NCBI GenBank assembly: GCA_947095535.1
Contig: OX352774.1
Coordinates: 32,008,496 to 32,072,495, forward strand
Direction: 5' to 3'
Length of the DNA stretch: 64,000 nt
Source of the DNA: Poecilobothrus nobilitatus
Lineage: Eukaryota > Arthropoda > Insecta > Diptera > Dolichopodidae
Positions 12,790 to 49,872 of this stretch are shown here, in pieces. Below the pieces are notes generated by a model that had not been told where the DNA came from, did not search any database, and saw only the letters and a program-made list of their open reading frames with translations. The position numbers and the translations under genes were made by a program. Positions within the stretch are counted from its first letter, which is position 1. Each line of letters starts with the position of its first letter.

Positions 12790-13010
12790 ATTTTATTGAT
12801 TCCATGAAATAAAGCCAAATAAAGTAAAGTCAAAATGTACGTTTTTGGCTTTATTTCAATTTCACATTTGAAATAAAGCCAAAAATCATGAAATTTTTAT
12901 TTTGACTTTATTTCATTTTTCAAAAACGAAAAAATGCCAAAATTAAAATGAAATAAATATCAAAAATATTTTTTAACTTTTTAATATTTATATATATATT
13001 ATGTATTTTG

Positions 13011-13180
13011 TTTTTAATGCATTTCTCTGCCTCATAAATGTGCACAGGAAATTACATAGTCTTTCCTGTTCAGGTGTGACTGTAAATGTCGTAAGGGGGA
13101 AATAACGCTTATAACGTGTGTGAGATTCGAACCCACACTCCCTCAGTGTTTTACAGTACCCACTAGGCCACCGAGGCCCC
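13011..13180 (-). mobile_element. tRNA-derived SINE, copy A (inserted inside FB1)
   Basis: On the minus strand the 5' end at 13180 reads GGGGCCTCGGTGGCCTAGTG. It contains an A box (TGGCCTAGTGG) and, about 40 bases later, a B box (GGGTTCGAATC), then a non-tRNA body ('TTACGACATTTACAG', 'TTTCCTGT', 'GGCAGAGAAATGCA') ending in an A-rich tail. The head is presumably transcribed by RNA polymerase III and the copy mobilised by a LINE. An imperfect target duplication flanks it: ATTATGTATTTTG at 12998-13010 and ATTATGTATTTG at 13183-13194. The insertion therefore post-dates FB1. Confidence 0.9.
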
Positions 13181-13433
13181 TTATTATGTATTTGTAAGAT
13201 TATAAATTAGGAGGAAGTTTTTTCGCCTTTTACAAAATATTTATATATTTTTATATGGGATTTTATGAGGGATTTATATAATATAATTAGGAGGGATTTT
13301 AGAGTTGATTTCAAAATCAGGGTTACACGCTTTTTCCAGAATATATACATACATATATATTTATATATACATATATATGTGGCATTCTAAATTAGGGGGA
13401 TTATAAAGCTGGATTCGAAATCAGGGTATTCCC

Positions 13434-13446
13434 TTCGGCCGCCGAA
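13434..13446. repeat. GC-rich palindrome at the inversion centre of FB1
   Basis: TTCGGC-C-GCCGAA is a perfect 6-bp stem with a single central base, which stands out in such AT-rich DNA. It lies where the internal minisatellite of FB1 switches orientation, so it may be the tip of the foldback hairpin. Confidence 0.6.
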
Positions 13447-13901
13447 TTTTGATGTTTTCAAAAACAAATAATTTTAATTCAAGTTTTTTCCTAAAATATT
13501 ATTTTTATTTTAATCATCTGCTTTAATATTCTGAATACCCTGATTTAAAATCCAACTCTAAAATCCCTCCTATTTCAGAATCTCACGTATAGATGTAGGT
13601 ATACAAAAAAAGCGGCAATCCTGATTTTGAATCCATCCTCATTCAGAATTTCACGTATATATAAATATTCTGGAAAATGCGTATAACTCTGCTTTTGAAC
13701 ACAACCAATAACAAATTTACTTTTCACAAAATTTCTGAAAAATAACAATTCAATTTTTTGCACATTAAAAAAAAAATTAGGAATTTGAAATAAAATCAAA
13801 TTGGCTTTATTTCAATTTTTCATATTGAAATAAGACAAAAATTTAAAAATTAGCTTTTTGGCTTTATTTCATTTGGCTTTATTTCATGGAACCATTTTAT
13901 T

Positions 13902-14942
13902 TTATATTATTATCTATACTTAATCTCTTTCCATTTAATTTCATTCAACTTACTCTTTAATACATTAAAATTTCATATTCTAAGATTAACAAAATATTTG
14001 TTTATAGAAAAAATTTCTCACTTCAATTCGACATGTCTAGATGTATTTTAAATTAACTAAAATTCAGTGCTCTTGTCATGATTATTTTTATTTTCATTAT
14101 CTTTTTTTTTTGATTCTTTTCTAACATACTTTTTTTTTATTTGTTTTTTATAAAAATAAATCTTTTTGTATGGAAACTGGAATAAAACTGAAAAAAAAAA
14201 AGTACATATTTTCAAGGATAATGCCATGTCATGTCGGTTCATAAAATACAAAAAAAAAAAAATTAAATAAAAATATTAAATTGAAATTATGTGAAAATTT
14301 AAAAAGTAAATATAAAATAAAAAAAAATATAACATTATATGATATTAGTGTTAATAAAATACATTCAATACCAGTATACAAAAAATATCCTTAAGGACGA
14401 GTTAAAAAATAACATCTATTCATTAAATATACTCATTCCAATATAAGTCATGTTTCTTTCACTTTGACTCTTCTTATAATAATCATTGAAATAAAATTTT
14501 GTTATTTCTGAGTGAATGAGCCAAAGAAAAAAAAAAAAAACAAAAACAAAGAAAAATAAAAGAATACGAAGAAGTCTGAGCTTTTTATTTTCTGTTTCTA
14601 ATAAGTTTATACAGAATAATATTATTCGTCCTTGATCTTTACAAAAAAAAAAAAAAAAAAAAGAAAAATATGAAAAAAATACATTAGACTGATTGAAGAA
14701 ATAAAAATTGTATTAATTATATTATTATTATTATTATGTACATATGTTTAATATAAATGAAACGTGAACAAATAATTTTAAAAATTTCCAGAATATGAAT
14801 CACAATCAGAAAATTTAAAAATTTATAAAAAGTTCTTGAGTAAATAAGGTAAAAAAAAAAAAAAAAGTCTGAGAAAAAAAAATCAACCACAAAATGAAGA
14901 CGAAAATTTATTTTAGATATTTCACCAAAAATTTAATCAAAG
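13902..14942. other. AT-rich non-coding DNA
   Basis: No gene or classifiable repeat is seen. There are several A15-A20 runs near 14525, 14640 and 14850. The minus-strand open frame at 14057-14251 is a lysine/phenylalanine-rich product of homopolymers and is not supported as a gene. Confidence 0.55.
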
Positions 14943-16523: not shown

Positions 16524-16556
16524 GAGGTAACATGGAGAGAGGAAAGTTTAATATTG
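16524..16556 (+). CDS. Candidate 33-bp microexon of an unidentified host gene
   Basis: The splice context is good. CTAAC lies about 17-20 bases before the junction, TGTTTTACAG forms the acceptor, and the donor is TTG|GTAAGC. The segment is 33 bp, so inclusion or skipping would preserve frame. Read from its first base it is EVTWREESLIL with no stop; the second frame stops at once; the third reads GNMERGKFNI. It lies on the same strand as the stronger exon at 29801-29926 and could belong to the same transcript, but nothing in the sequence proves this. In 64 kb of AT-rich DNA a chance acceptor-donor pair at this spacing is possible, so this is a candidate only. Confidence 0.3.
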
Positions 16557-16810
16557 GTAAGCTTTTATGAAAAATGTACACCACAGTATTCTTATGGGAA
16601 TTTGGTAAATCTCAATAGTAGTAAATAAGCTTTAGAAAACATTTATTTATTAAAAATTATATCGGGAATAAAAACTTTGATTGCATCTTAATTTTTCAGA
16701 TTCTGTTAATTTTTTTTAACAGTCGATTAAAAAGCATTCAATTAAAGACTTCATTCATAAAATGTCTTAAGATGTTTTTTTTTTTTTTTTACGAAGGACG
16801 GTGGAAAACA

Positions 16811-22046: not shown

Positions 22047-22238
22047 GGGCCCTCGGTGGCCTAGTGGATAAGAGCGTATAAAATACGCGGTAAATACCGA
22101 GGGAGTGTGGATTCGAATCCCACAAGAGTTATTCCCCCTTACGACATTTACAGCTACGCCTGTAAAGAAAAGGCTGTGTAATATCCTGTTCAAATTTATA
22201 TGGCAGAGAAATGCACTAAAAATTAAAAATAAAAAATA
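22047..22238 (+). mobile_element. tRNA-derived SINE, copy B
   Basis: The head GGGCCCTCGGTGGCCTAGTG contains the A box. The B box GGATTCGAATCCC follows at about 22110. The body has 'TTATTCCCCCTTACGACATT', 'CTGTGTAATATCCTGTTC' and 'GGCAGAGAAATGCAC', and the tail is A-rich. Between the boxes it carries a longer spacer than copy A. Head, body and tail order match copy A and copy C. I see no convincing target duplication. The tRNA parent is not identifiable with certainty. Confidence 0.9.
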
Positions 22239-25200
22239 TATTTTATTTTAATTTTTTTTTTCTTTATGTGTTTGTGGTAAAATGTATCCAAGACACAAAC
22301 CTGATCACTATAATAAATTCATTTTAAAGTTTTATTGTTTTAAAGTACCAGAGTGTCATTTAAATTTTTTTGTATTTATATTTAATTCTATACCTATACT
22401 TTTTTCTTCATAATTGTTCCCTCCTGTAAATAATCGAAATATAAATGAATGTTTTTGCAAAAAAAAATCAACAAAAGGATAATAATATAGGAATCATCAC
22501 ATACATACATTTAAAAATAACACATACTTTGGCTGCTATATTAGGTGTTTTATATCCTTGACACAAACGAAATATACAATAATTATATAAATCGTAGACT
22601 TCCAAGGAAATCAGGATCTTATCATGAAAGAATAGAAAGATAGAAAAAAATAAAAATTAGATAAGCAAGTACTTGAAATTTGTACCGTTAGTGAGGTTTT
22701 AGTAACTGCTTCTTGGAATTATATAATATTTAATTTTTTAAAGTAATATTATTTAAAAACAATACCTAAAAGTATGCAATGTTTGCCAAAAGAATATATT
22801 CGTACTACAATTTAACTGGGTAGCCGATGGTTCAATAACATTATATTACATTTATGTATGTAATATTAATATAAATAAATAAATAAAATAAAATTAACTG
22901 TATAAGAGCTCTATAGCGCAGTGATTAAACATCAACCTTATAATCTTGAAAATGAACTTTCATTCCTGCGAAGGTCGCGAGCATTTTTAATTGGATTGAA
23001 AATTGGATCGGTGTACGAATGTTGGTGTATTCGGATTTAGATTCGGATTTAAAAATATGTCAGTTCAAAAGAACATAATTAAAAGGACATGTGTGTTCTA
23101 AATATACTAAATATCAGAGAAAACAATCAAATAGTTTATTTTTTTTTAATATGAAGTGCTAAAAAACTTGAAAATTAGAAAAAGAATAAGGGGGAAAAAA
23201 TAAAAACTCTTTTCTGTTTTTTTTTTTTTTTTAAGTAGAACGACAATCTAATTTCACCTGTTTATCACATGTATATAAGAATAATGTTATAATGTGAAAA
23301 ATACAATTTGTTATATTAAGCAAAATGTAAGTATTTTTTATGTAACTCTACAGTGTTGCGCTTAATAATAAAGAAATGCTTTGTAGAACATGATGACTGA
23401 AGATGTAAATTTTCTCCTTTGTTTGTAATTTGAAAATACAATCATCCCCAATATCAGAGACCACATGGAGGCGGCAGATGGTTCTATATTCACGATATTT
23501 AAATTACAAAAAAATTTTCTTATGATGAATTATGCTATTTTAAACCACGTAGGAAAACATTCTTTGGAAAACTTTGAAGGCATCAAACTTTTTATTTCTG
23601 TGGAACAAGAAAACACTTGAGTCTAATCTGTAAAATAGACTAAGTGAACGGACTAAACGTTGGAAACTTAATGAATAAAGGTGTTGAGGTGATATTGGGA
23701 TAGTTTCTTAAACGCTCTGTTTAGTCTTCTGCAAAAATTTCTTTATTAGACCATCTATCTTTGGTCGTTTTGATTTGTTCCATCAAAAAAATAGATGCAT
23801 CAATCTAATTAATCATTTAACTTCATGCCCAAGATATTCAGTTCACCAATATGTTTCAAAACCTTTCCTTGAATTGTTAAGGTAGGAATCGTAGTATTAA
23901 TTTTTTTAATTTACGTGATTAAGCACTGGGTTGATTAACCCGCCCAGTAAGAGATTTTTTACAAAATCTGGATTTAACGACGAGCAAGTGAAATCATTTT
24001 TTTCCTTTCCTGAACCTAATTAATCATGTCTTAAATCAACTTTTACATATTTCTTGAAAATTTAACAAAAAATTTAAATATTTTCGTAATTTTAATTTAA
24101 TTTGAAATTTTCAATTTGAAATTGAATTTATTTTGATTTTATTTATATGACTTTAACTGTACATAAACATGTATTAAACCTTAAATCAGGAAAAAGGATA
24201 AGAAAAAAACTAATGACAGTAAGAATATGAAGAAAAATAAAAAGTTTTGTGAAAAAAGTAAAAAAAAAAAAAATTTTCTTTAATTTTCTTATTGTCTGTG
24301 TTGTCTTTTTCAGATCAACAGAAACTTTTTATATTATATTTATTTTTTAAAAAATTGTTTATATATTTTGTATGTATTTTTCAAACAAATACAAAGTCAC
24401 TAAAAATTTATATATATCTACATATATTTTATGTAGATATATTACATATATTTAAAATTTATATATATCTAATATATCTACATATATACATTGTAATACT
24501 TCCTGATTATTTTTAGTACTTATATACACTTAATAAGAAAAGGAAAGCTTCAAATTATCCTATGTATTTGTTTATATAACTTATATATAAATTTTTATCT
24601 AGGACAATTTCTCTTATACTCAGACTTTAACTGACTGAATATAAACTGAAAAATATTATACAATTATAATTTAAGTCATTTGTTTTGAAAAAAAGAAGAA
24701 AAGAGTTTCGTTAGTAATTTTAAAGGATAAAACTTTTCACCCAGTTTTGAATTTCCTTTTTTTCATTACTTTTGAACTAAAAGTAAAAAAAAAAAAATTC
24801 ACGCAAAAAAAGAAAAAGAAAAGGAAAATAAAAAACACTTAAAATTATCACAAACTTTGTCTAAAGATTGAGTTGATTTTCAGTTGTAAAAATGGTTATA
24901 TTTAATAGTTGTTTTGTTGCAATTTTGGTTCTTTTTATTTTTTTTATTTTTTGCCTTTTGTAAAATAAAACTTAAAGGTGTTTTAAAAAAAATAAGAAAT
25001 AAAATGACATTAAAGTTAATTTACACTAATAGTATAAGAGTTAAGGTTACCATATGTGAAGCATTAAATTAATTTTTTTAAGTATTTAGTAAATTTTTTC
25101 ACCAATTCAAATCATCATCACAAGATTACTTGTATATTATATTATCGTTTCCATATAGATAAAAGATATATTATAGTTATCAAATAATAGGTTACAAAAT

Positions 25201-25256
25201 ATTTTCACACCTCAACCAATGTTTCTTCCCTTAACGCCCACAGTAAGAAAATAAAA
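22239..25256. other. AT-rich non-coding DNA with one tRNA-like relic
   Basis: Apart from the tRNA-like stretch at 22905-22985 there is no supported feature. A small stem with loop (GGGTTgattAACCC) lies at about 23928-23942 in a slightly GC-richer patch. A TA-rich, ATATATCTAC-rich stretch spans 24405-24490. The open frame at 24292-24516 is an artefact of that TATA-rich stretch. Confidence 0.5.
22905..22985 (+). repeat. Degenerate tRNA-like sequence
   Basis: It contains AGCGCAGTGATTAAACATC as an A-box-like block and, 35-40 bases later, GAACTTTCATTCCTGCG as a weak B-box-like block, followed by GAAGGTCGCGAGC. The pattern suggests a tRNA or SINE head, but pairing of an acceptor stem is poor. It may belong with the similar stretches at 2980 and 54559. 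Confidence 0.3.
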
Positions 25257-26166
25257 AACAAGTAAAAGTAACAGTAAGTCAATTTAACCGACTTATACCC
25301 TACACCTAAAAAATTCAAATTAAATTAAACTAAAAATCCATAAGTTATTTTAGTTAAGTATTTAATATAACTAAGCTAAAAAAATAAATGCTTTTACAAC
25401 CTTTGTACAAAATTTCAGATTTCTATCCTTATTAAATTCGAAAATAAGCTTCTTAGGTCTTGGGAAGTGTGTGAAGGCACGCGGACCACCACCACAATTC
25501 ATCTCAAATTTTAGAGACATCAACAGGGTAGAATATTCTTATATCAAATTTTAAGTTTATATATTTATTAATTTCGAAGATATGCTTGTTCGGTTTTGGG
25601 AGTTGTATGGGAGGTACCCGAACAGCTCCTCCAATTGATCTCAAATTTTCAACAAATAAGGGATTCAGGACACAACACCCTAGTACCAAATTTGAAGTTT
25701 CTATCTTTATTAATTTCGAATATATGCTTGTTCGGTTTTGAGATTGGTATGGGAGGTACCCGAACAACCACTTCAATCCATCTCAAATTTTAGGCATATC
25801 AGGGATTCAGGAAAACACACCCTCGTACAAAATTTTAAGTTTCTACCTTTATTAATTTCGAAGATATGCGTATTCGGTTTTGGGAGTTGTATGGGAGGTA
25901 CTCGAATGCATGGTCCGATTTCGCCCATTTACAATCCCCGCCTTACCTTAGTTATTGTTAACCTACAGTATAAATTTCATCAAGATAGCATCATTATTTT
26001 TTGAGTTATCGTCCGTACGGACGGACATCGCTAAATCGACCCCTGAGGTGATCCTGATTCAGAATATATATACATGTCTATACCTAACTCGCTTCCTTTT
26101 GATGGTTAGAAATACCAAATACCATACCAAAGTTAATATACCCTATACTTAATGTGTAGGGTATAA
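25257..26166 (+). mobile_element. ATACCC-type element of about 0.9 kb, copy 1
   Basis: The left end reads AACAAGTAAAAGTAACAGTA, then TTATACCCTACACCTAAA. The right end reads CCCTATACTTAATGTGTAGG, then GTATAA. The outer words TATACCCTACAC and GTGTAGGGTATA form a terminal inverted repeat. A second copy lies at 61255-62192 in the same orientation. Inside are four tandem units of about 140 bp, then 'GCATGGTCCGATTTCGCCCA' and 'CGGACGGACATCGCTAAATC', then 'CTGATTCAGAATATATATAC'. This arrangement is familiar from dispersed repeats of fly genomes. No transposase is encoded, and the overlapping open frames are shadows of the tandem units. Confidence 0.85.
25437..25900 (+). repeat. Tandem array of about 140-bp units inside the 0.9-kb element
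   Basis: The motif TTCGAAGATATGCTTGTTCG, continuing into GGTTTTGGGAGTTGTATGGG and AGGTACCCGAAC, recurs near 25581, 25723 and 25865, a spacing of 142 bp. A diverged first unit starts near 25440 (AGGTCTTGGGAAGTGTGTGA). The same four-unit layout occurs in the second element at 61437-61900. Confidence 0.85.
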
Positions 26167-26265
26167 CAAGAGGTCTAAAATAGGATTACCTTTATTAGAC
26201 TAAACTAACACACATTCAAAGAGTTTGAGTTTGCCTAGTTTCCATAAAGTGTTTTTCAATGATAC

Positions 26266-28569: not shown

Positions 28570-29428
28570 AAAAAAAAACAAGGTAGAATGTAAACCAACG
28601 GTTTTAAAAGCACACATTTCCAAAACTCAATACAAACTGTTTGGAATTGTGACTTGCACAAAAATTTGAAAATTTCATGTAATAAGAAAAAAATGTGAAA
28701 ATAGGACATTTTTGAAATTTTGAGGGGCCGTAAGTCCGGAATCTTATAACTACAAAAGAAAACTAAGAAAAGCCGTTAACACACGTAAAAATATATTATT
28801 AAACCTTTAATTTTCATATCTTGCCGAAGAAAAATGTTTACAGGTGTCTAAGTTACAGGTGTCTAAAAATAGCAAATTTTCAATTGAGGCGTAATAACTC
28901 TTAAAGAGAGGGTGCTACCAAAAAATTTTCTGAGGAAACTTATACTAATTCTAAAAGTTGTTTCTTGCCTCAAAATTTCAAGCCTCTATCTAAAAGCGTG
29001 CCGGAGTTATGAAAGTAGAAAAATCATGCAAAATTTGGTTTTCACATAACGGTAAATTTAAATACTAAATTTAAAAAAATTGTATAATTTTGATATTAAT
29101 TTACAAAATTAAAAAAAATACCTGTCGAATAACGTTTTCAGATTAAAAAAATTTTAAGCAGAACATAAGATATATGCATTTAAAAATAGGGCTTTTTCAA
29201 AGTTTGAGGGGCTGTAGCTCCGTAATGAGCCGCATCCATTAAACATGAAAAAGTTGTTCCACAAAATTATTTTTTTTATGAGATCTACCCATGGTTAAAA
29301 TTTTTTTTCTCTATCTTTAACGGTGTAGAAGTTTTGTAAACAGACGGACGGACGAACGGACGGACGCGGACAGAGTGAAACTAATAAGCACATTTTTTCA
29401 AAATTATTTTGGAAATGTGCTAAAAAAA
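28570..29428 (+). mobile_element. Repeat of about 850 bp ('ACCGTTATGTGAAA' family), forward copy of a near-identical inverted pair
   Basis: It starts AAAAAAAACAAGGTAGAATG and contains 'AAAAGCACACATTTCCAAAA' near the left end and 'TTTTGGAAATGTGCTAAAAA' at the right end. These form a subterminal inverted repeat around AGCACATTTCC. In between lie 'GAGGGGCCGTAAGTCCGGAA', 'TTTCACATAACGGTAAATTT', 'GGCTGTAGCTCCGTAATG'-type blocks and the GGAC-rich tandem 'GACGGACGGACGAACGGACG'. The copy at 40584-41440 is its reverse complement with few differences by eye. There is no ORF, so it is non-autonomous. Confidence 0.85.
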
Positions 29429-35200: not shown

Positions 35201-35478
35201 AAAATGTTTAAATTTAAATGTTATATATTTCTTTCTCCTTCTTCTTCTTCTTTTCTCATTTTTAAATTTAAGAGGAGAATGCGACGGTTATATGTGCATA
35301 ATAAGCATCAAAGTTTTATTAGTTTAAGTAATGTAATGAAAAAATTATTAAGTAAAGTTATCTGTGATATAAATCATAAATACTGTAAAAATATTATCTA
35401 AATTACTTATTAACTCCCTATCTAAAATATCAGAAATTTCTATTTAAATTTTTTGCAATTTACCAATATTAAAACACA
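32296..35478. other. AT-rich non-coding DNA
   Basis: Apart from the doubtful microexon at 33460 there is no supported gene or classified repeat. The minus-strand frame at 32455-32787 and the + frame at 35204-35401 have no recognisable motifs and A/T-driven composition. Slightly GC-richer patches occur at 33930-34020 and 34860-34930 but match nothing else here. Confidence 0.5.
33460..33486 (+). CDS. Doubtful 27-bp microexon candidate
   Basis: The segment sits between AATGCACAG and GTAAAT and reads FTVSPEYET in the frame of its first base. It is a multiple of three and on the same strand as the exon at 29801. The acceptor lacks a pyrimidine tract and other CAG positions are nearby, so chance is a serious alternative. 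Confidence 0.15.
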
Positions 35479-35643
35479 GGGGTCTCAGTGGCCAAAACAC
35501 CGAGGGAGTGTGGATTCGAATCCCACACACGTCGTAAGAGTTATTCCCCCTTACAACATTTACGGCCACGCCTAAACAGGAAGGGCTGTATAATTTCCTG
35601 TCTATATTTGTGGCAAAGATAAGCATTAAAAAAAAAAAAAAAA
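35479..35643 (+). mobile_element. tRNA-derived SINE, copy C (A-box region deleted)
   Basis: It starts GGGGTCTCAGTGGCC and then jumps directly to AAAACACCGAGGGAGTGTGG, so the A-box 3' half and spacer present in copies A and B are missing. The B box GGATTCGAATCCC is intact. The body ('TTATTCCCCCTTACAACATT', 'GGAAGGGCTGTATAATTTCC', 'AAGCATTAAAA') and a poly(A) tail follow. The tail abuts the left arm of foldback element 2. The deletion should abolish efficient polymerase III transcription. Confidence 0.85.
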
Positions 35644-35649
35644 ATGCTC

Positions 35650-36729
35650 TCGGAAATAACCCCGCAAGAAATAATCCCAAAAAAAATAAAATTAAATAAC
35701 ACCGCAAAATGTTTGTATAGAAAATAAAGCCGCAAAAATTGGGGCATTATTTCATATTTTTTGCGGTCTTACTTAATTTTTATTTTTGGAGCCTTATTTC
35801 ATATGAAATAATCCCCCAAAACAAAATAATTTTACTAATGAAATAACTCGCCCAAAAAAACTACATTTTGGGGATTATTTCATTATTTTGATAAATAATT
35901 TCTTTTGATTTATTTATTTTAATAAATGATCTAATTAATAATTAAACTTTTATATTTGTTTTAAATATTTCCAGTTTCAAGTTAGTCCTCCTGGAGTTAT
36001 GGAGACTCAAATTCTGTCTGATAAATTTTATAACCTATAAACTGTGACAGCTTTTACTATTTTTAAAATTTCTGCAAAAAGCGTATAACCCTGATTTTCC
36101 AACCTAAAAATCTTTAAAATCAACCCAAAATCGCTTCTAATTCAGAATCTCGCATATACTTATAAATATTTTGGAAAAGGTGAATAACCCTGATTTTGTA
36201 ACCAACTATAAAATTCCTCCTAGTTCAGAATTTCACATCTACATATATATAAATATTCTGGAAAAAGCGTGTAACCCCGCATTTTAATCCAACTCTAAAA
36301 CCTTTCATAATTCCGAATATCGCATACAGTTAAATATATAAATATTTTGTAAAAAGAGAATAACCCTGATTTTGCAAAAAATTATAAAATCCCTCCTAAT
36401 ACAGAATCTCGCTTATACATAGATATTATGTATGTAAAGATTCTTCTAAAAGCGAATACTCTGATACTCGTCGCCAACTTTAAAATCCTTCCTACTTTTC
36501 GGGATTTTGTTATTCATCCAAATGTAATGACCCCTTAATTAATATAATATAGGTACTATTAATTAAGGGTTCTTAAAATAATTTTGGGGAGTATTTTATT
36601 TTCATAATTATGTGAATATATATAAATATGTCATTTTAACACATTTCATAATGAAATTCCCAATTTTTTTGGGTGTTATTTAATTTTTTTTTTTTTTTGA
36701 GTATTATTTTCTGCAGGACTATTTCCGGC
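35650..36729. mobile_element. Foldback-type element 2 (FB2)
   Basis: The left end reads CGGAAATAACCCCGCAAGAA, then ATAATCCC. The right end in reverse complement reads CCGGAAATAGTCCTGCAGAA, then AATAATACTC. Both arms (about 35650-35900 and 36570-36729) are rich in GAAATAAnCCCCnAAA-like words in both orientations. The interior (about 36070-36500) holds tandem units of roughly 85-100 bp with 'AATAACCCTGATTTTG', 'AAAATCCCTCCTAATACAGA', 'ATCTCGC' and 'TTCTGGAAAAAGCG', all pointing the same way. These are the same units as in FB1 and FB3. There is no ORF, and I could not find a target duplication. Confidence 0.75.
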
Positions 36730-39439
36730 AGCCATATTAAAATTCAACTGAACCGATAAAATAAACGACGGAAAAATGTTACCAATTTCATAGAAGAAAA
36801 TATTACTTTTTTGAATAAATTCCACTTGAAATCAACATTTGGACAACATTGATCTTTCAAATATCAAAAAAAATCTTAAGAAAATCTTTTTACAGTATCT
36901 AATATTATTTAAAAAAAAGAAAAATCTAATTTTGCTACGAAATCAATCAATCTTAATACTTTTATATCAATTTTATTCAAAATACTTCCTATACATAAAA
37001 TAATTAATAATATTATGATAGTATTTTCCATATCAACCTTTCTCTTCAAAATAGTCTCTATTTTTATAAACCTCATTTCATTTTATTAAAAATATTATTC
37101 TAGACCAATAACTTGTCATTAAACCGTATCTCGTTTTTCCCATTTATTAGATCCTTTTTATTTTGAATTTAAGAATAACTCTAATTTATTTTTTCATCAT
37201 TCCTTCATTGAAATGTTTTTTTTTTAAATTGTCGTTAAAATACACATACATGTACATATGTACCTATACTTAATATCTGTATAATTTTTTCAAGATTTTA
37301 CTCAAGAATTTGAAAACATTAACAATATTATAATATGAAGTATTATAATATGCAAATGTCAAAATTAAAAATGGTTCGTGTCTCGAATCAATTTCACCAC
37401 AGTTGTCACAAATGATTAATTTATTTAAAAATAGGTAGAAAGGAATTGCCAGATAATTGGAATTGATGAAAATTAATGAATTAAAAAATAAAAATTGATT
37501 AAAAATAGTTATAGCTACAACGTTACATACTGAACGAAATGAACACAAATATACATATGTATGTATTTTATAAAATTATGTATGCATTTAAAAAAAATTT
37601 TACTACTAAAAATAAAAATTTTCAATCAAATCTTATTTTAAATATCACCCCTGTTATTGCTTCATTTAATTGCAACTAATAAAAAACTAAATTAATGTAC
37701 CTACTACCCATACATGTACATATTATGCAAGTACATAAGTATATTATGTATAATAAAGTTTTATTTTTTCAAAAAAAACCATATTTTGTTTGTCTTAACT
37801 TTGAAAGCATTCAATTATCATTAAAATGAGTTAATTTTGAAAATTTTCTAAAATTTATATTTTCATTTTTAGTGTAAATAACAGAATATGTTTTTTTTTT
37901 TTTGTATTTTGTTGCGTTTTATTTTTAAAGATTATTAAAACGTCAAAATTTACTTTATATATGTATGCGTTTTTAAATATGCCGTTATAACTTATAAAAA
38001 TAGGCATATTAACTAAAATAAAAATATTTTTAATATTTAAATATTTTTTTTATTGTAAGTACATAATATGTATGTATGTATGTACATAAAAGAAAAATAA
38101 CTATTCAACAAATTTTTTTTAGAAAATAATATTTATAACTGTTTTTTAGATACGGTGAAATTATAACGGTACGTACTTGCATATGTAAATATAAAATAAA
38201 ATAAAATTATCGTAAAATAAAATTTTTGGAAAATGTAGAGAAAAAATATAAAAGCAAAAAAGGAAGTTATGATTATTACAAATTATTTTTACAATTTTTG
38301 CTTTTTTTTTTTTTTTTATAAATGAATTTTAGATAAAAATAGTAAAAAAAACGGTAAATCGACATTATCTTTGATAAAGTGTTATAAATTATGACATTAA
38401 AGTAAATATTGCAGAACAATATGTAAATATTGCCCAACAATAATACTAATATGTTTTTTTTTTTGCTTTTTGCATACCTACATTTATGTATATATTATGT
38501 ATAATATTATTGCATGACTTTATAAATTTAAATTTTTTACTGTTATATTTATTTACTGTTATTTTGATGCTTGTGGCATCTAATAACGGTTTAACATATA
38601 CATAGTTAACTCATTTAAAAAAATGGGCGAAAAAAACTTTAAAATAAAATAAAAATATTTGAGCATTACATATTTATATTATTATATATTTTTTTTTTAT
38701 TATCAGATAGGCTTTCCGTTCGTTTTTCTGTTGTTTTTTTTTGATTATTACTGTTATTATAAAAGTGTTTACAATTGCAATTCACCTGTAATAAAAATAT
38801 ATATTTTATCGTACAAAATAATGTAGAGAGTAATATAACTAAATTAAAGTTTTGATTTTTTCTAATATACAATGAAAGGTACATAATATTATGTACATAT
38901 ACATTTAAGTATATACATATATATATGTATGTACATGTGTACATAATATGAATAAATTTCAAATCGTAGTGAATTAAATTTTAAATATTTGTTTAAACTT
39001 TAAATTTTACGAAAAGTTTTAAAATAAAATTTGTGCTTAGAAAAAAAAAATGAAAAAAAAAAACTTGATTGATAGCAAATATGCCCTAGTTTATATACTA
39101 AACATAATATTATAATAATTTCATTTAGTTATTTGAGAATTTAATAAATTTTATTAACACATTTGCTATATTCCTATGTTGATTGATTGGTTTACATATT
39201 TATTCTATAGAATTGTATCTTAGAGAGAACAAATAGTATAGGCGAAGTACGGTTTTGATCCCATATGCTTATAGCCTTGGTTGTCAACTATCTTGTGCCA
39301 GCAGCCAATATAAAGTTTAGAAGTAAATTATAGTTTTTTAAATTTTTTTTTTCAATATAAATTGAAAAGCTTCTGCATATTGTTGTACAAAAACAATCTA
39401 TGAAATGTGTTTTTTTTTCTCCTGTTTTATTTCCTTTGG
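36730..39439. other. AT-rich non-coding DNA
   Basis: No supported feature. There is a (GTAT)n-like stretch at 38060-38090 (ATGTATGTATGTATGTACAT) and TACATA-rich stretches at 37550-37570 and 38885-38945. The open frames at 37270-37548 and 38666-38962 (minus) are artefacts of these. Confidence 0.55.
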
Positions 39440-39571: not shown

Positions 39572-39677
39572 ACATATTTTTATGAAATGTGTGCGTTGAA
39601 GATATTATTGAATAGAAAAATCGCATATTCAAACTTAATTAAGATATTCGATTCCCTAGAAATATTTATTTTTGTCA

Positions 39678-39869
39678 TCATAACTTCATTTTAGTACCAC
39701 TAAATGCTGATAATAAAACTCAATCTTTTACTTTAAAATTTACTGGATTGTTAGTTCCATCTTTAGTTCTACCGTCGGGTCTAACCGCAACTGCTCTCCT
39801 TTGTAATACTTTACTTTGGCTCTTTTCTGTTATAACGATGTCATTACTAGTTGTTGTTACTGGTTCAAA
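39678..39869 (-). pseudogene. Decayed coding relic, possibly LTR-retrotransposon integrase C-terminus
   Basis: A minus-strand frame from 39869 reads FEPVTTTSNDIVITEKSQSK, then VLQRRAVAVRPDGRTKDGTN and NPVNFKVKD, a stop, then VLLSAFSGTKMKL and a stop. It is much less A/T-driven than its surroundings. NPxxFKVxDxVLLS resembles the segment near the end of Ty3/gypsy-type integrases, but the rest does not help. It may be part of the same decayed retroelement as 39440-39571 or an independent one. I hold the family name loosely. Confidence 0.35.
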
Positions 39870-40583
39870 TCTTTAAATGAGAACTCTATGTAATAATGAA
39901 AGTAATTTCTTAATTGGGTGTTCCATTTTTATAAATTTTTCTTAAATAAAATGCACAGAGAATAGGTATCTATCTACTAAAAAATTATTAAGATTAAAAT
40001 TTTTTAAGAGAGAATAAAACGCACGTGAAGCGTTCAGACAAAATTTTTTTTGATAGGTGATAAATAAGCTTACATCTGTTTCAGCACTATATTGGTAGGT
40101 GGGAATCTCGAAAGACGCCAATAAAATCAACACACGAATTCTTCTTAGCAGTGTTGGACTTGAACTAACCAAATTTCACATCCCTTTAGAACGAAACATT
40201 AAGTTAGAACCTATGATACAATCTACGCTGTTTCGTTTGTGGATTGGGGAAAATATAAAATAATAAAGAAAATTGAGAAACGTGGAAAGTTACTGGATGA
40301 TAACAAATGTTGTAAGGAATATAAGAATATTTTTCCTGGCTACATGAGTTGGGACCGCCTATCGATCAGCTAACAACTGAACTCATAACTTTATCGAAAC
40401 TAGTATATTGGGCTCATATGCTAGAGTTGAGACAGTCAACTATACGCTGTTTCTTGTTAATAAATATTTTTAGTATGAGTAATTTGATGAAGAATGAATA
40501 ATTTGACAGTTTAAAATAATGCGAAAAATCTAGAAAATAATCACGGATTCTTTTAACGATTTTCTTCATCTGCATATTTCCAA
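39870..40583. other. AT-rich DNA with a possible element terminus
   Basis: 40405-40460 reads GGGCTCATATGCTAGAGTTG, then AGACAGTCAACTATACGCTG. It resembles the terminus at 43545-43590 (ATCTAAGAGTTGACAAAGTC) and may be a solo end of that family. The minus-strand frame at 39942-40172 has no recognisable motif. Confidence 0.4.
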
Positions 40584-41440
40584 TTTTTAGCACATTTCCA
40601 AAAAAAATTTTGAAAAAATGTGCTTATTAGTTTCACTCTGTCCGTCCGTCCGTCCGTCTGTTTACAAAACTTTCACACCGTTAAAGAAAGAGAAAAAAAA
40701 TTTAACCATGGGTAGATCTCATAAAAAAAATAATTTTGTGGAACAACTTTTTCATGTAGCCCCTCCCACTACGGAGCTACAGCCCCTCAAACTTTGAAAA
40801 AGCCCTATTTTTAAATGCATATATCTTATGTTCTGCTTAAGATTTTTTCAATCTGAAAACGTCATTCGACAGGTATTTCTTTTATTTTATTATTTTATTA
40901 TTTATTTAAATTAATATCAAAATTATACAATTTTTTTAAATTTAGTATTTAAATTTACCGTTATGTGAAAACCAAATTTTGCATGATTTTTCTACTTTCA
41001 TAACTCCGGCACGCTTTTAGATAGAGGCTTGAAATTTTGAGACAAGAAAGAACTTTTAGAATTAGTATAAGTTTCCTCAGAAAATTTTTTGGTAGTACCC
41101 CTTTTTTAAGAGTTATTACGCCTCAAAAATTGAAAATTTGCTATTTTTAGACACCTGTAACTTAAAAACCTGTACAAATTTTTCTTCGGCAAGACATGAA
41201 AATTAAAGGTTCAATAATATATTTTTACGTGTGTTAACAGCTTTTCTTAGTTTTTTTTTATAGTTATAAGATTCCGGACTTACGGCCCCTCAAAATTTCA
41301 AAAATGTCCTATTTTCACATTTTTTTCTTATTACATGAAATTTTCAAATTTTTGTGTAAGTCACACAAAAGTTTTTTATTGAGTTTTGGAAATGTGCGCT
41401 TTTAAAAACCGTTGGTTTACATTCTACCTAGTTTTTTTTT
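40584..41440 (-). mobile_element. Repeat of about 850 bp ('ACCGTTATGTGAAA' family), inverted copy
   Basis: This is the reverse complement of 28570-29428 over its full length, from TTTTTAGCACATTTCCAAAA to the outer CATTCTACCTAGTTTTTTTT. It includes CCGTCCGTCCGTCCGTCTG, TTTACCGTTATGTGAAAACC and TTCCGGACTTACGGCCCCTC. Differences are few, mainly in A/T run lengths. With its partner it makes a potential 850-bp stem around a loop of about 11 kb that contains the host exon. Confidence 0.85.
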
Positions 41441-42033: not shown

Positions 42034-43590
42034 ATACCCGTACGATAGGATCGGGTATAATAAAATTACTCCTCCGTTTGTAACACCTCGAAATAAGCGA
42101 GCTAGATATACCTTCAAAGGTATGGATCGGATCAGAAAAAAATTCTAAAACTTTTGAGCCATGTCCGTCCGTCCGTCCGTCCGTCAGCACGCTAACTCAA
42201 AAACTAAGAAAGCTAGAATCTTGAAATTTACACAAAATATTCTGGGAGTAATTTGTAGGTTCCCTATTTTTTTTGGTTGAGTTTGGACCAAGCCTTAGGG
42301 TAGCTCTCGAACACCTAACTTTTAGATCCCTACATTTTTTTTGAAATAGAGCTATGCAATTTTAACTGCTGATAGATCTCACAAAAATATTAATTTTATT
42401 TTTAATAACTTTTTTTTGTAGCCCCACACGTTACAGAGCTACAGCTCCCCAAATGTTCAAAAAAGCTCTATATTTAAATTCTTATAGCACAAGTTGTATA
42501 AGGTATATCTTCATTTTGAAAACGCCAAACGATTACTACTTTTATTAGCTTTAAAAATATATATACAATAAATATATATTTGTGACATACGGTGTCTTAA
42601 TTTACCGTTATGCGAAACTCAAATTTTGCAAAATAATTTAACCCTTCTATCTTCTAAACGGTTTAAGTTGGAAACTTGAAATTTTAACAGAAGTTAGATC
42701 TTTAAAAATAAGTATGAGTCATATTAGAAATTTTTTTTTATCACCCCCCATTTAGGAGCTGTAAGGGGTCAAAAACTGAAAATTTCCTATTTTTAAACAC
42801 CTGTAACTTGAACACCTGTTAAAATTTTTTTGAAGTAATACACAAAACTTAAAGCTTCAACATTATACTCTTATTTCTGTTAACAACTTTTTTTAATAAT
42901 GTAGGGTTACTTTATAATTGACGAAAGTGTTACTTGATTTTTTCAAATTTTCTAACAAATTTTTTCCATTTTGTTTTACTCGATAATTTGAAATTGTTGA
43001 GGATATATGCGTAGTACAAAAAAATGTAAAGAAATAAACAACATAACGGTTGCTGGAAGAATTTTTATTTATATGATATTGTTATACATACATACTTATA
43101 TAATATCATGTTTATTTACATATCGTATAAGTCACTGATGAATGAATGATAAGAGTATAGATGTATATTATATAGCGCCGTATTTACATACATATATGTA
43201 TTTTATTGTACTTATAAGAATTTATTCTGTCAATGGAACATTTAAATATAATATAATATAATATTTAAAATTATATTTATTATTTTGTACTAAGTAAATT
43301 TAATATACATTTACCGCTTAGTATTAAATGGTACTATATAATATTTGAAAAAGTTTTGGATTGATAATCGTTATGTGGAAGGTTAGAATCTCATTTTGAA
43401 GAATGCATAACCATATAGTTTGAATATATGTACAACCCATAGTTCTAGAAATTATAAAATTCACCCAAATTATTTTAAAATACTAAAATATTAAAAAAAT
43501 AATATTGTAAGCAGAGTGGCTGTGAACATACTAACGGTTCGTACGGGTATCTAAGAGTTGACAAAGTCAACTGTATTCTTCCTCGTTTTT
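42034..43590 (-). mobile_element. ATACCC-type element, about 1.5 kb
   Basis: The left end ATACCCGTACGA is inverted at 43539-43550 as TCGTACGGGTAT. The left end itself folds (TATACCCG...CGGGTATA). After the right word comes CTAAGAGTTGACAAAGTCAA and a T-rich tail, as at other family termini. The interior contains CCGTCCGTCCGTCCGTC, TTGTAACACCTCGAAATAAG and, further in, a diverged version of the 850-bp repeat core ('TTTACCGTTATGCGAAACTC', 'CACCTGTAACTTGAACACCT'). This style is common in flies. No ORF is present. Confidence 0.7.
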
Positions 43591-44725: not shown

Positions 44726-45080
44726 ATATTTATCATGGGATTTATTTTTTTGATATACATATTCACTTCCTGTCATTCATTCATTCAATTTTTCATCAGA
44801 TTTTTTAATTCGATATATTGTGTGTATATGTATATAAAGAAAATTTCAAGTACCTATATCAATGAATAAAAACTGAAAGATAAAATATGTTTCAATCTAT
44901 ATTCTGATACTCAAATGTATTAAAAATCTAACAAAATCCAATAACTTCGAAGTCCCCATAAAAATTCTTTATATTTTAATAATATATGTGCAGAAATAAA
45001 ATACTATATTCTTATATAGCTACCTATTATTATTTATGATATCAGCCATATAGGTAGGTGCCACAAATACATATTGTATA

Positions 45081-45441
45081 TACAGGGTATTCCACACCAT
45101 GTGTATCTGGTTTTTAAGCAAAAAAAAAAAGGGTCGTTATTTCCAAACATAAAAAAAAAATATTATTTAAATTGGAGTTGCATTGTCCATTGGTGATATT
45201 TCTAACTTTCGGAAAGGACTGGAAGTTCATCTAAATCTACATTTTAAAATCAGAAGGGGTATGTTTCAGTGCAAAATAGAGTTCTATGTTCTATTAAAAA
45301 TAACAAAAACTTTTGCTTTTATAATATTGTTTTGTTCTCTGAGAATTTTTTTCTTTAAAATTAATAAAAATAAAACAAAAACCTTTTATTTTTCCTTTAT
45401 AAATTAAAAAAACTGATACGCATGCTCTGGAACACCCTGTA
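45081..45441. mobile_element. MITE with 27-bp terminal inverted repeats (Tc1/mariner-like size and TA target)
   Basis: The left end TACAGGGTATTCCACACCAT, then GTGTATC. The right end in reverse complement is TACAGGGTGTTCCAGAGCAT, then GCGTATC. 23 of 27 bases agree. A TA lies on each side, compatible with a TA duplication, though TA is very frequent here. The element is 361 bp and lacks a transposase. The + open frame at 45183-45407 is internal and has no recognisable motif. Confidence 0.75.
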
Positions 45442-47527
45442 TACATAAATGTAATATTAATACATTAGATTCTGTTACATATAGATACAAAGTATTATAA
45501 ATGGATGAAGATGAAATTAAAAATCATTGGTTATCAATAAAAATTTAATGTTGCCACTGATTCATTCATAAATTGTACATGGTACCTATACCTACCTATA
45601 TGTATATGGTACTTTTGTATTTTTTCAAAAACACGATTATATTAAGGTGTAAAAGAACTGTTATTTATAATTTACAATTATTTTAGGAATATAATTAGGA
45701 ATGAATTTTTTTTTTTAGTTGTTGTTGCTGTTTTTCTTAAATTTTCCATTAAACTTAAAATCAATTCCTATTAAACAAAATCTGAAAAATGAATTAAAAA
45801 ACATCTACATATATTAAACTATAAAATGTCGCATCAGTACATACCTATATAATAATAAATGCTAGGATAGCTAATATTAATTTGAACCCGGTAATAATAA
45901 ATGACAAGACATATTATTTTAGTTGAGGCTCAGATGTTTAGCTTTAATTTGCTTGTAAATTTCAAAAGTTATATTTTGAATCATATTATTTTTACCATAT
46001 TAGTTTCTAGTAATAATCCTTGTAATCATTTTAAAAAAAAAAAACCAAAAAGTTTTAAAGTAGTTTCTATCTAAATTACGAATCTATGTCAAATTAAAAT
46101 AATATTACTTTATAAAAAATCATTGCGACTTTGAAAATTTAAAAAAAAAATCATTTCAAAATCCATTATATTATATACAAGTATATGTGATTATAGGTAG
46201 GACTAACTCGACTTTATGATTCAGTATGTATGGATAAAAGGAGTTTTCTGACCCGTATATCACGAAATTTCCTTTTCATTATCTACCTTCAAACCAATCC
46301 CTGTAAAGTCAGGGTCAACCAAAATAGTAAAGTCAAATTTTGTATCGTGATATAGATATTTCCCTCGTTGAATCATTTATCGAAAAAGTTTTTTTACAGA
46401 TCACCTTACGTAATTTACCTTAGGTGACTAATCTAATTCCTCACCCTCCGTATAAAGCTAATCACATCGATTAGTGACATAAATCTTATTTGTTCAGTAA
46501 ATAATTTCCAACGATATTATAGCTTCTCAGATTCGCGAATAGATAAGCTAATTTAGAAAAAATTCAAACAATCAATAATCGTTATAACTTATACTTTTTT
46601 GCACCATTCAACAGATTACGGATGATTTGAATCACGAATGTAAAACGTATATCGTAAATGCTAAAAGACACCAACTCACTTTCTGTGACAATGATGACTA
46701 AATTATTTAGCTATTCTTATATGTAAATGAAAGATTAACCAAAGCTTATATTAAGAAAAATGTCTGATACCAAAAAGACAAAAAAAAAACACAACATAAG
46801 AGTTTAAGAGTCAGCAAAAAGAAAAAAATTATCTAAATACCAAAAAAATCTTTAAAATTAATGAAATTTATAGAATTTTACTAAAAGAAAAACCATTGAT
46901 TTTCCAACGTATTTACATAAAACTAATAATATAAAAATTCTGTATAAAAATTAAGAAAAAAAAAAAACTTTTCAAAAAGAAGCCATTAAAAATCTCCAAT
47001 TTACAAGAAAAAAAAAATATTAAAATTTATAAAAAAACCATAATTAATTAAGTAATAATTTTACAAATTAATCCTAAAGGAATTTTTAAAGATTTTAATT
47101 TAGTTTATTTACAATAGAAACTTTAAACCCATACCCTTATAAACTATAAGAAATTAATACGTACTTTTAACCTTTCTCATATTAGATATAATTTACAATA
47201 TTTTTTTTTTTTGTTATATTATAAAGAATATACCCTAAAAATAATTTATTTAAATCTTTAAAAAACTTTTAAACTCAATTATATTCATGATTTCTTCTTA
47301 CCCCATTTTTGTTTTCTAACCATTCTCTTAATCACTTCTATACACACATTTTTGTTCGAATTTTTTGAACAAAATTTCAAAAAAATATTTTGGCATATTA
47401 ATAATTTCTTTGTATTGTGAAAACTTTGGATATAAGTTTTCTTTATTGTTGTTTATTTATGTTTTTTTTTTTTTCTTTAACTGTAATGAATAATTTCTTT
47501 AAAGTTTTTTAAAACTTTATTATTTTT
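45442..47527. other. AT-rich non-coding DNA with a GC-richer patch
   Basis: 46195-46520 is visibly less A/T-rich than its surroundings ('CCAATCCCTGTAAAGTCAGG', 'CACCCTCCGTATAAAGC') and may be a mobile-element relic, but I recognise no family, ORF or repeat partner in this window. The remainder is A/T runs. Confidence 0.5.
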
Positions 47528-48410
47528 GTTTTTTTTTTTTTTACACGCTAACGCTAGGAACGAATTCCTTTATACATATGTAGGTTTATTTATTAGGAAA
47601 ATAGGATGTTAAAGGGGAATTAATGGGAAGATTGGAAACGAACCTATAAAGATTCGTTTTGAATTTTTGCAAATTATAGTACGGAACGTTATTAACAGAG
47701 GGGAACACATTAGATGGAAGCATGTTCCACATCTTAGCAGTTCTCACAACAAATGAGTTTCCATAGCCAGTTTTAAACCATCTTGGAATTTCCACAGTGT
47801 AGAAATTAGCATTTGCAGCTCTTCTGGTGTTACGTTGGAATTGTTTAAGAGGAGGCATAATTGATTTAAGTTCTAGAGCTACAAGATATCTATAAAACAG
47901 AGAAATAGCTCCAATATTACGACGCGAATTAAGTGGAGTAAGTGTTACTTGTTCGACGGGGTCGCCTATTAGGCGTAAGGCGCGGTTTTGGATTTTGTCG
48001 AGTTAATTCAGAGAAGTTTGGGATGCGCCAGCCCAAATGTGAGAGTTGTACTCCATCTTAGGTCGAATGTAGGCTTTATAGATATTAGACAGATCCTTTG
48101 GAGATAAATATGTTTTGCAGCGGGACAGAAAACCCAAACATTTGGCAGCACGTTTAGCTATATCAAAAATATGCTCATTCCACAGAATTTTTTGATTTAG
48201 CTGCAAACCTAAAATGCTTAGACTTTCTGATTGCTCTATATTTTCTCCTTGAAATCGCAGAAATCGCGGGTTAAAGTGATTTCTTTTGCAGGAAATCAGG
48301 CAGCTTTGAGTTTTTGAGGTATTGAACTCAACTCTATTAGTTTTACCCCAATCAGTTATTTTAGTTAAATCATGGTTTACTAAACTAACCATAATATTTT
48401 AATGGTTAAC
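47528..48410 (-). pseudogene. 5'-truncated non-LTR retrotransposon (LINE), reverse-transcriptase thumb to 3' end
   Basis: On the minus strand a single frame runs from about 48392 to 47586, broken once by a TAA at 48003-48005. The first part has SILGLQLNQKILWNEHIFDI, then AAKCLGFLSRCKTYLSPKDL and IYKAYIRPKMEYNSHIWAGA: the post-catalytic region and thumb of LINE reverse transcriptases. After the stop it continues in frame LDKIQNRALRLIGDPVEQVT, then RRNIGAISLFYRY, PPLKQFQRNTRRAANANF, RTAKMWNMLPSNVFP. The endonuclease and catalytic YxDD region are absent, so it is 5' truncated. The 3' UTR ends TAGCGTTAGCGTGT followed by a poly(A) tail (T run 47528-47542 on +). A/T-rich words similar to ACAAAAATA flank both sides and may be a target duplication. 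It belongs to a Jockey/CR1-like clade by style. It is dead but the youngest LINE copy here. Confidence 0.88.
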
Positions 48411-49042
48411 CATAATATTTTTTGTTTTTTCAAATAATATTTTAGTTTTTCACTATAATGAAGTGAAGCTTTTCTTTAAAAAAAAAAAAAATTAACTTCT
48501 GTCAGTTATTTTATTATAAAAAAATCTTCTACTTAGTACTTACCTACATACATATGTGTTTATTTCTCTTCAACTGAAAATAAATCATGCGTGTACCATT
48601 TTGATTTAATAATAGCTATATTAAAAATATTATTTACTAGTTTATCTGTAGTACCTATATATAGACTTCAGGTAGATAACAGGTATATACGCTTAACATA
48701 ATTTTTAAGAATTTTTAATTTTACCACATTTCATTCAAAACATTATGTAAGTAAAAATAATTTATAATAAAATTATTTCCACAAAAATTTATTGTTTTTT
48801 TTTTTTTCTAAGAATCTGTCAAACAATTAATAAATATTCTATAAATTCATAATAAATTTTTATCTTTTTTGTTTTGTTTTTTTTTCTGTTTCTATTCCTA
48901 GAATCTTATAAAGGAATATTCTAAAAAAAATATTCTTTACATTTTATACCTATACCATAAGTAGAACATCATCTATGTACGCACATTAATTTTAATAAAA
49001 TGAAAAATATTTATTTTTATTTAGATTTTTAGGGTTGGGTAC
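48411..49042. other. AT-rich non-coding DNA
   Basis: Nothing is recognised. At its left edge AACCATAATATTTT occurs twice (about 48389 and 48409), a small duplication at the 5' junction of the LINE. Confidence 0.5.
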
Positions 49043-49872
49043 AAAATCTCGCATTTCAAGATCTCGCGTGTCAATATCTCGCATTTTCAAATCTCGTGTT
49101 TGAAAATGTCGTGTGTCAAAATCTCGCGTTTCATTTTGGTCAGTTTTTGATGCCGTTAAACTGAATTATCCGCGGACGCAAAAAAATGTGGCGGTCTGGC
49201 ACAGGCGTTTATAATCCGTAATAGGCAGAAGAATATTGAAAAATGTTAATTTTGTAATACAAGTGAAAAAAAATTATAAAATATAGGTAATATTATATAA
49301 TTGAAAAATTGACTAATAATTTTTTAAAAAGCAATATTTTTTGTTTTTTTTTTTCCAAATTTTCGGTTAATTTTCTACGAAAAGAGGACAACTCTGATTT
49401 TAAATACAATTCTAAATTCCCTCTTAATTTAGAATCTCATACATCCATATACATAAATATTCTAGAAAAAGCGCATAATCCTACATATGAATTCAACACT
49501 AAAATCCGCATAATATACACATATTCTGTAAAAGTCGTACAATCCTGATTTTTTATATTTACAAAATCCCTCCTAATTATATTTTTGCATACATATTTTA
49601 ATATTAAGACATTAAAAAACATTTTAAAATAATGGGGTATGCCGCTTCTTCCCTCCGTATTATGTTTTTGCATACATAACCCCACTAAAGAAATTATATT
49701 GAAACCCTTATTTTGAAACCAACTTTCAAATCGCTTCTAATTATATTTTCTACATTAATATTTCAACTACAAAATTATAAAAAGCGCGACATTTTGCAAC
49801 ACGAGATTTTGACACGCGAGATTATGTAACGCGAGATTTATGTAAGTACGAGATTTTGATTCGCGATATTTT
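49043..49872. mobile_element. Foldback-type element 3 (FB3) with 15-bp repeats in the arms
   Basis: The left arm (49043-49132) is six units of about 15 bp of the type AAAATCTCGCGTGTC. The right arm (about 49780-49872) is about six such units in reverse complement (GACACGCGAGATTTT). The interior (about 49364-49745) has the same minisatellite as FB1 and FB2: 'ACTCTGATTTTAAATAC', 'CCCTCTTAATTTAGAATCTC', 'AATATTCTAGAAAAAGCGCA', 'CCTGATTTTTTATAT', 'AAAATCCCTCCTAATTATAT'. Between the left arm and interior is a GC-richer stretch (TCCGCGGACGC, GTGGCGGTCTGGCACAGGCG). No transposase is seen; open frames at 49309-49548 and 49437-49685 are shadows. Confidence 0.8.

What the first reader, a model, noticed from the sequence alone, without database searches (positions are those of the whole stretch)
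12798..49872. Three foldback elements share a minisatellite core but carry different short-word arms
FB1 (12798-13893), FB2 (35650-36729) and FB3 (49043-49872) all contain the same internal unit (landmarks CCTGATTTT, AAATCCCTCCTAATTCAGAA, AATATTCTGGAAAAAGCG) between inverted arms. The arms differ: GAAATAAAGCCAAA words in FB1, GAAATAAnCCCC words in FB2, and a 15-bp AAAATCTCGCGTGTC repeat in FB3. FB1 and FB2 arms look related while FB3 does not, as if a common core were paired with arms that each homogenise or are replaced independently. This modular design resembles Foldback/Galileo-type elements but I know of no described family with this core. Novelty is an inference.
Basis: partly seen in the sequence, partly recalled or inferred. 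Interest (0 to 1): 0.8.

Follow-up and report, generated by a model that had tools for sequence, protein, structure and literature searches.

The report
One minisatellite core, many foldback arms
Short DNA transposons scattered through this animal genome share the same internal repeat but wear quite different repetitive arms, as if the arms are rewritten while the inside and the extreme tips are kept.

Summary
FB1, FB2 and FB3 have inverted arms above shuffles around one 84-87-bp core. FB1 is a complete element, 12798-13893, with an 8-bp target duplication. The 944-Mb genome holds 10,296 matches to a core 20-mer, control 1. Forty fetched core loci show about eight arm-word types by eye; 15 of 40 pass an inverted-arm test at 95%.

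FB1's tip has 138 matches. All 11 inward-facing pairs fetched carry the core; 8 of 11 have an exact 8-bp duplication. In six copies arms, core and loop are about equally conserved. Between arm families the core stays 0.79 identical, while no arm or loop hit links the main families. L046, with FB3-type words, shares tips and core with elements of other words.

Best reading: non-autonomous foldback transposons whose 15-bp-word arms turn over between conserved tips and a conserved, perhaps exchanged, core. The transposase is unresolved: P and MULE both occur. FB2's ends and Galileo kinship are unproven.

The parts
12790..12797 (.). FB1 left target-site duplication ATTTTATT
   Evidence: exact 8 bp; 0.007 of 400 random spans reach it with +-4 bp freedom, 0.028 with +-8
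12798..12965 (+). FB1 left arm: tip GATTCCATG, 15-bp words GAAATAAAGCCAAAT in both orientations
12998..13183 (-). tRNA-derived SINE inserted in FB1 (later insertion, own 12-bp duplication AAATACATAATA, by eye); not part of the transposon
   Evidence: 81% to 35494-35645, 79% to 22092-22241; family copies L052 and L054 lack it
13200..13428 (-). FB1 core units, minus orientation
13429..13535 (.). FB1 loop, shared by the six family copies compared
13536..13705 (+). FB1 core units, plus orientation
13784..13893 (-). FB1 right arm, tip GGTTCCATG (read on the minus strand)
13894..13901 (.). FB1 right target-site duplication ATTTTATT
35480..35645 (+). SINE with poly-A abutting FB2's left end; ATATTAAAA at 35466-35474 recurs at 36734-36742 outside FB2's right end, so it may be the SINE's own duplication or that of SINE+FB2
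35651..35880 (+). FB2 left arm, words GAAATAAYCCCGCAA / GAAATAATCCCCAAAA
36060..36500 (+). FB2 core array, about 4.5 units of 87 bp
36575..36729 (-). FB2 right arm
49025..49031 (.). FB3 left duplication ATTTTTA (weak: 0.083 of random spans)
49032..49135 (+). FB3 left arm: tip GGGTTGGGTAC then six 15-bp words AAAATCTCGCGTTTC
49390..49765 (+). FB3 core units
49785..49885 (-). FB3 right arm, 15-bp words
49886..49892 (.). FB3 right duplication ATTTTTA
8429..8947 (.). FB4: old relative of FB1 by its ends, no core detected; no duplication found
   Evidence: arm score 40, maximum of 300 shuffles 29; right end 74% to family arm, E 1.5e-6

Best explanation
FB1-FB3 are non-autonomous cut-and-paste foldback transposons of three families within one larger group. 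Each has (1) a G-rich tip of about 10 nt next to an 8-bp (7-9) target duplication, (2) arms made of a roughly 15-bp word repeated with drift, (3) an inner 84-87-bp minisatellite, and (4) a loop. Inferred mechanism: a transposase supplied in trans recognises the tips and, cooperatively, the repeated words, as reported for the THAP sites in Galileo arms. Slippage, unequal exchange and arm-to-arm conversion rewrite the words within a family, so arms diverge beyond recognition while tips and core persist. The core is kept or re-acquired through exchange between elements. Shown here: architecture, duplications (firmly for FB1's family), genome-wide families, shared core and unlike arms. Inferred: binding role of the words, conversion, exchange. 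Not known: which transposase (MULE somewhat favoured over P).
For: Genome counts: core 20-mer 10,296 (control 1); FB1 tip 138 (control 3); FB3 arm dimer 875 (control 0). FB1 family: 11 of 11 fetched tip pairs carry the core; exact 8-bp duplication at the expected register in 8 of 11 (9 of 12 with FB1), 7 of 8 in L062, a 9-bp one in shifted register in L061, none in register in L053. FB1 is a full-length copy, arms 92-97% to three copies. Core loci: 12 of 40 have flanking inverted arms above the 99% null of 300 random spans, 15 above 95%, with low-complexity masking that hides some word arms (L017, L031: compare). Conservation: within the family, over six copies, arm/core/loop 0.899/0.935/0.923. 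Over 89 core units: between arm families 0.788, same family 0.824, within one element 0.813. 15-bp period in five of six arms; also in L063 (14 of 15 at lag 15). Tips GGGTTGG/GGGAGCG in the CAAAATCCC-word elements L015 and L048 and in the CTCGCG-word element L046, which has ATCAAAAAT (9 bp) on both sides by eye.
Against: No element with a transposase between two such arms was found. 25 of 40 core loci did not pass the 95% arm test. In the tip-plus-duplication scan only 6 of the 40 loci beat the maximum of 60 random spans, one of them (L039) on AT-rich sequence; L015 and L022 did not, nor did FB2 and FB3. FB2 has no duplication in register; FB3's own right tip (GTGGAAGCG) fits GGGAGCG only loosely. 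Tips and arm families were drawn partly by eye, and the scan weights GC matches. If arms had simply diverged along with the core I would expect about 67% identity (my estimate), near the detection limit in AT-rich words, so 'no similarity' is weaker than it looks. Core orientation relative to the nearer arm is not constant between families (by eye).
Confidence: 0.72

Rival explanations
1. The core is a mobile minisatellite that has been captured independently by unrelated foldback or MITE families; arms were never replaced.
For: With the core masked, no arm or loop hit links the four main families; their cross-hits are SINE or flank repeats. Core layout differs by family: inverted pair in most FB1-family copies, one orientation in others. 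In L013 and L030 other repeats lie against core units.
Against: L046 (FB3 words) and L015/L048 share unequal tips and core but not words, which fits arm turnover. Core units usually find their nearest relative in their own arm family (27 of 30, 9 of 11, 4 of 6, 10 of 11, but 0 of 3), and the same-family excess exceeds all 2000 label shuffles over 12 elements.
Confidence: 0.35
2. Autonomous partner is a MULE (Mutator) element: L063 is the wreck of one, with tip, 15-bp-word arm, core and transposase.
For: L063: GGTCACC tip, words GACAAAATCTTGAAA at lag 15 (14 of 15), core units 1668-2181, MULE domain 2768-3028 in a 112-aa frame with further pieces downstream. PMC4079207 says most foldbacks seem to belong to Mutator (passages).
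Against: No right arm in the remaining 2.8 kb of L063 or in L064; the best reverse matches to the left arm are two of 27 bp (E 3e-4). The reading frame is broken. One of 21 listed MULE hits lying near a listed core is roughly a 4% coincidence (my estimate). P transposases give more candidates (1646 against 390).
Confidence: 0.4
3. Autonomous partner is a P-superfamily element, making these Galileo-like.
For: 1646 first-look candidates for PF21788, of which 150 were scored and all 150 were over cut-off, frames up to 757 aa; PDB match to P transposase. 8-bp duplications are usual for P (recalled).
Against: The two P loci fetched show no long word arms (L050 has one 39-bp AT-rich inverted match) and no core array (L051 one 31-bp match, E 0.005). 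0 of 27 listed P hits lay within 5 kb of a listed core (by eye; the core list is partial). tblastn of two P proteins found only a C-terminal repeat tail.
Confidence: 0.2
4. Chance: AT-rich simple sequence that looks foldback-like.
For: The window is 76% AT.
Against: Shuffle controls, reversed-pattern controls, target duplications.
Confidence: 0.01

Closest known systems
Tetris (Drosophila virilis foldback; PMC4079207, passages read)
   Same: Long arms with tandem repeats, variable middle, 8-10 bp duplications, non-autonomous, modular; [quoted passage not shown]
   Different: Its tandem unit (~220 bp) is part of the arm; here one core is shared by families with unlike arm words of about 15 bp.
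Galileo (P superfamily; PMC3688188 and PMC3573991, passages read)
   Same: Long repetitive arms that are the most variable part; conservation between species restricted to ~40 bp at the tips; chimeric copies, including arms of one subfamily with the middle of another.
   Different: 7-bp duplications, P transposase inside some copies; no shared minisatellite core of this kind in the passages read; no P transposase found in these elements.
Mutator-like elements with long TIRs (PMC13359780, passages read)
   Same: Arthropod MULEs have TIRs of 13 to 1193 bp; L063 puts a MULE remnant beside a core.
   Different: No intact MULE with these tips found here.
Bivalve pearl-type elements with satellite-like internal repeats (PMC5139131, passages read)
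   Same: Related internal tandem repeats occur in several non-autonomous elements.
   Different: Foldback word arms were not described in the passages read.
Sea urchin TU elements (recalled; one search found no paper on them)
   Same: Arms with an outer domain of 15-bp repeats (recalled).
   Different: From memory, TU elements keep the arms and vary the middle; here it is the reverse.

Membership tests
Foldback-type DNA transposon (structural class) | Long inverted arms built of short tandem repeats around a middle domain | tested here: met
   (FB1-FB3 and part of the sampled loci)
Foldback-type DNA transposon (structural class) | Target-site duplication flanking a tip-bounded unit | tested here: met
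   exact 8 bp in 9 of 12 FB1-family elements; not met in register for FB2 and weak for FB3
Galileo / P superfamily | P-type transposase inside some copies | tested here: inconclusive
   tblastn of two P proteins found only a C-terminal repeat tail; few and short copies examined
Galileo / P superfamily | 7-bp (Galileo) or 8-bp (P, recalled) target duplication | tested here: inconclusive
   8 bp; several superfamilies share it
Mutator-like (MULE) | MULE transposase between the same tips | tested here: inconclusive
   L063: dead MULE beside one arm and core, no right arm
Mutator-like (MULE) | 8-11 bp target duplication (recalled) | tested here: inconclusive
   8-9 bp
hAT, Merlin and other superfamilies | matching transposase linked to these tips | not tested
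   no search made
Free satellite DNA | long tandem arrays without arms | tested here: not met
   1-7 units per locus in the 40 loci sampled

The most novel reading that the evidence does not exclude
One transposon lineage has radiated into many families by rewriting only the middle layer of its ends: fixed tips and a fixed inner minisatellite, with the 15-bp words between them turning over like transposase recognition codes. The core would then be a conserved or horizontally exchanged cassette shared by thousands of otherwise unlike foldback elements in one genome.
Probability: 0.35. Interest if true: 0.75.

Novelty: new variant of a known kind. Interest (0 to 1): 0.62.

Why it matters
Foldback arms are thought to hold many transposase-binding sites, but how such arms arise and change is not settled. 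Here one genome offers many elements with the same core, and in part the same tips, but different words: a natural series in which word turnover, arm-to-arm conversion and core exchange can be measured directly, and in which co-evolution with a transposase can be tested.

Tried and rejected
Tried without result: tRNA and Rfam scans of the window; Pfam on single ORFs and on whole frames with X at stops: the three plus frames of about 1-59,990 and the three minus frames of about 29,995-59,990. These found no transposase, only a Cpn10-like pseudogene and a FolB match below its cut-off. The minus strand of 1-30 kb and the last 4 kb were not scanned. The LINE fragment found no relative. The core 20-mer in viral contigs gave 0; in genome contigs one bacterial contig matched, which I read as chance.

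Considered and dropped: FB3's words derived from the core (shared AATCTCGCAT). ATCTCGC occurs 8 times in the window, all in FB2's core or FB3's arms, and shuffled arms gave low fractions. Against GC-matched window segments the same-orientation score is only 14.9; the low fraction (0.005) comes from the reverse strand of the left arm, and the right arm is ordinary (0.14). The core consensus shows no 15-bp period. A P link through repeat sequence around L050 was dropped: the shared stretch is a separate repeat abutting the ORF.

Unanswered: genome counts for other tips (GGTGCAGTGACARAACGCCC, CGCCACGAAATCCCAAA, FB2's tip, L063's tip).

Full report
What is in the window. FB1, FB2 and FB3 have inverted arms and a shared core, as reported. 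Arm-to-arm alignment scores are 78, 61 and 64, against shuffle maxima of 39, 39 and 28. A core HMM from any one element finds the others, and no core was found elsewhere in the window. FB1 is precisely 12798-13893, with ATTTTATT on both sides. FB3 fits 49032-49885, with ATTTTTA on both sides, which is weak evidence alone (0.083 of random spans). FB2's ends are unsettled: its left arm abuts a SINE, and the only direct repeat found, ATATTAAAA, lies outside the SINE and outside FB2's right end. It may belong to the SINE or to a compound unit.

Anatomy. In FB1 the core lies as an inverted pair around a loop. In FB2 and FB3 it is a single-orientation array. Core units are no more alike within than between the three elements (0.708 and 0.706; permutation 0.40), so the array was already diverse before the three parted or was drawn from a common pool. 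Arm words differ, but a 15-bp step is the best or second-best lag in five of six arms (FB2's right arm is not significant). A fourth element at about 8429-8947 has FB1-type ends and no detected core.

Genome. The window is C8:32008496-32072495 of a 943.8-Mb assembly in 84 contigs. A core 20-mer with up to 2 mismatches matches 10,296 places, the reversed control 1. I fetched 40 loci (6 kb each, all from the first part of C1 and all around exact matches, so biased). Core arrays have 1-7 units per locus. Flanking inverted arms exceeded the 99% level of 300 random window spans in 12 of 40 and the 95% level in 15 of 40; dust masking hid word arms in at least L017 and L031. A stricter scan for a tip pair plus an 8-bp duplication put 6 of 40 above the maximum of 60 random spans, one of them on AT-rich sequence. 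Arm words read by eye include CAAAATCCC (L015, L048, L049), ACAAAATCC (L017, L032, L019), CAAAATCTCC (L031), GAAATAAAGCCCGC (L022), GAAATAAAGCC (L026), GAAATAAAGTCG (L014), GACTTAACTTC (L039, L045) and FB3's CTCGCG (L046); some of these look akin. In ten loci read by eye (mostly without detected arms) I saw single ends or other words in L021, L024, L028, L037 and L042, and nothing clear in L010, L018 and L025.

FB1's family, found without reference to the core. Its tip matches 138 places, control 3. I fetched the 11 inward-facing pairs that I noticed among the 100 listed places, besides FB1. All 11 carry the core. An exact 8-bp duplication sits in the expected register in 8 of the 11; L062 has 7 of 8; L061 has 9 bp in a shifted register; L053 has none in register. 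FB1 is a full-length copy plus a SINE, and L052 and L054 show the SINE's place empty. Across six of these copies, picked for a complete core pattern, identity is 0.899 in arms, 0.935 in core and 0.923 in loop, so inside a family the core is not markedly more conserved.

Between families. Over 89 core units, identity is 0.824 between elements of the same arm family, 0.788 between arm families and 0.813 within an element (families assigned by eye). With the core masked, no arm or loop hit links the four main families; their cross-hits are SINE or flank repeats, while some unassigned loci do share flanks (L021, L030, L034; L027 with L039 and L045). If arms had diverged along with the core, I estimate they should still be about 67% identical, near the limit of detection in such sequence, so this is good but not absolute evidence for replacement or exchange. 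One case favours replacement in place: L046, with FB3's words, and L015/L048, with CAAAATCCC words, share the unequal tips GGGTTGG and GGGAGCG and the core; FB3's own right tip fits only loosely. FB3's arm dimer has 875 genome matches, control 0; L046 holds one of the listed places.

Which transposase. P-type transposases are numerous (1646 first-look candidates, 150 scored and all over cut-off), and two reading frames are clear relatives of the Drosophila P transposase. The two loci fetched have no long word arms and no core array (L050 has a 39-bp AT-rich inverted match; L051 a 31-bp core-like match, E 0.005). tblastn of these two proteins against the core loci, elements and window found only a shared C-terminal repeat tail. 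MULE domains are also present (390 candidates, 150 scored). One lies 1 kb from a listed core: L063 has a GGTCACC tip, 15-bp words, core units and then a broken MULE remnant, but no right arm in that locus or in the adjoining L064. I rate MULE 0.4, P 0.2, others the rest.

Mechanism. The likeliest course is trans-mobilisation by a transposase that reads the tip and, cooperatively, the repeated words. In Galileo, THAP sites within the repetitive arms were shown by footprint and band shift (PMC3688188, passages). Word arrays evolve by slippage, unequal exchange and arm-to-arm conversion. Chimeric copies that join arms of one subfamily to the middle of another are known in Galileo (PMC3573991, passages). 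The binding and conversion steps are inference here.

Novelty. The closest relatives that I saw in print are Tetris and Galileo. I saw no description of one minisatellite core shared by many foldback arm families in the listings. Those searches cover open PMC papers only, and no repeat database was available.

Noticed in passing
window 39657-39896, minus strand: A Cpn10/HSP10-like reading (E 2.1e-10) interrupted by stops: looks like a retro-pseudogene.
   Followed up: partly
window 25245-26169 and 61244-62195: Two 86%-identical repeats, each carrying a 142-bp minisatellite (2.5 and 3.8 copies): another element with an internal tandem repeat.
   Followed up: no
window 28570-29426 and 40584-41440 (inverted): A 0.9-kb repeat, 90.6% identical in opposite orientation, with weaker copies at about 6.9, 19.3 and 42.4 kb.
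   Followed up: no
window 47586-48398, minus strand: Dead LINE-like reading frame (recalled type) with one in-frame stop; no Pfam match and no protein-database relative for its downstream part.
   Followed up: partly
window 36530-36571 (FB2): A near-perfect hairpin (ACCCCTTAATTAATA and its complement, by eye) between FB2's core and right arm.
   Followed up: no
genome G000, many places: An expansion of P-superfamily transposases, at least two score classes, many with long open frames.
   Followed up: partly
L050:943-1799; also L010, L013, L027, L029, L040, L041, L062, L063; window about 43508-43585: A common unidentified repeat with a sharp end at about L050:1799, abutting the P reading frame and found inside one FB1-type element, L062.
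   Followed up: partly
window 45074-45448: Small inverted-repeat element with ends TATACAGGGTRTTCCA.
   Followed up: no
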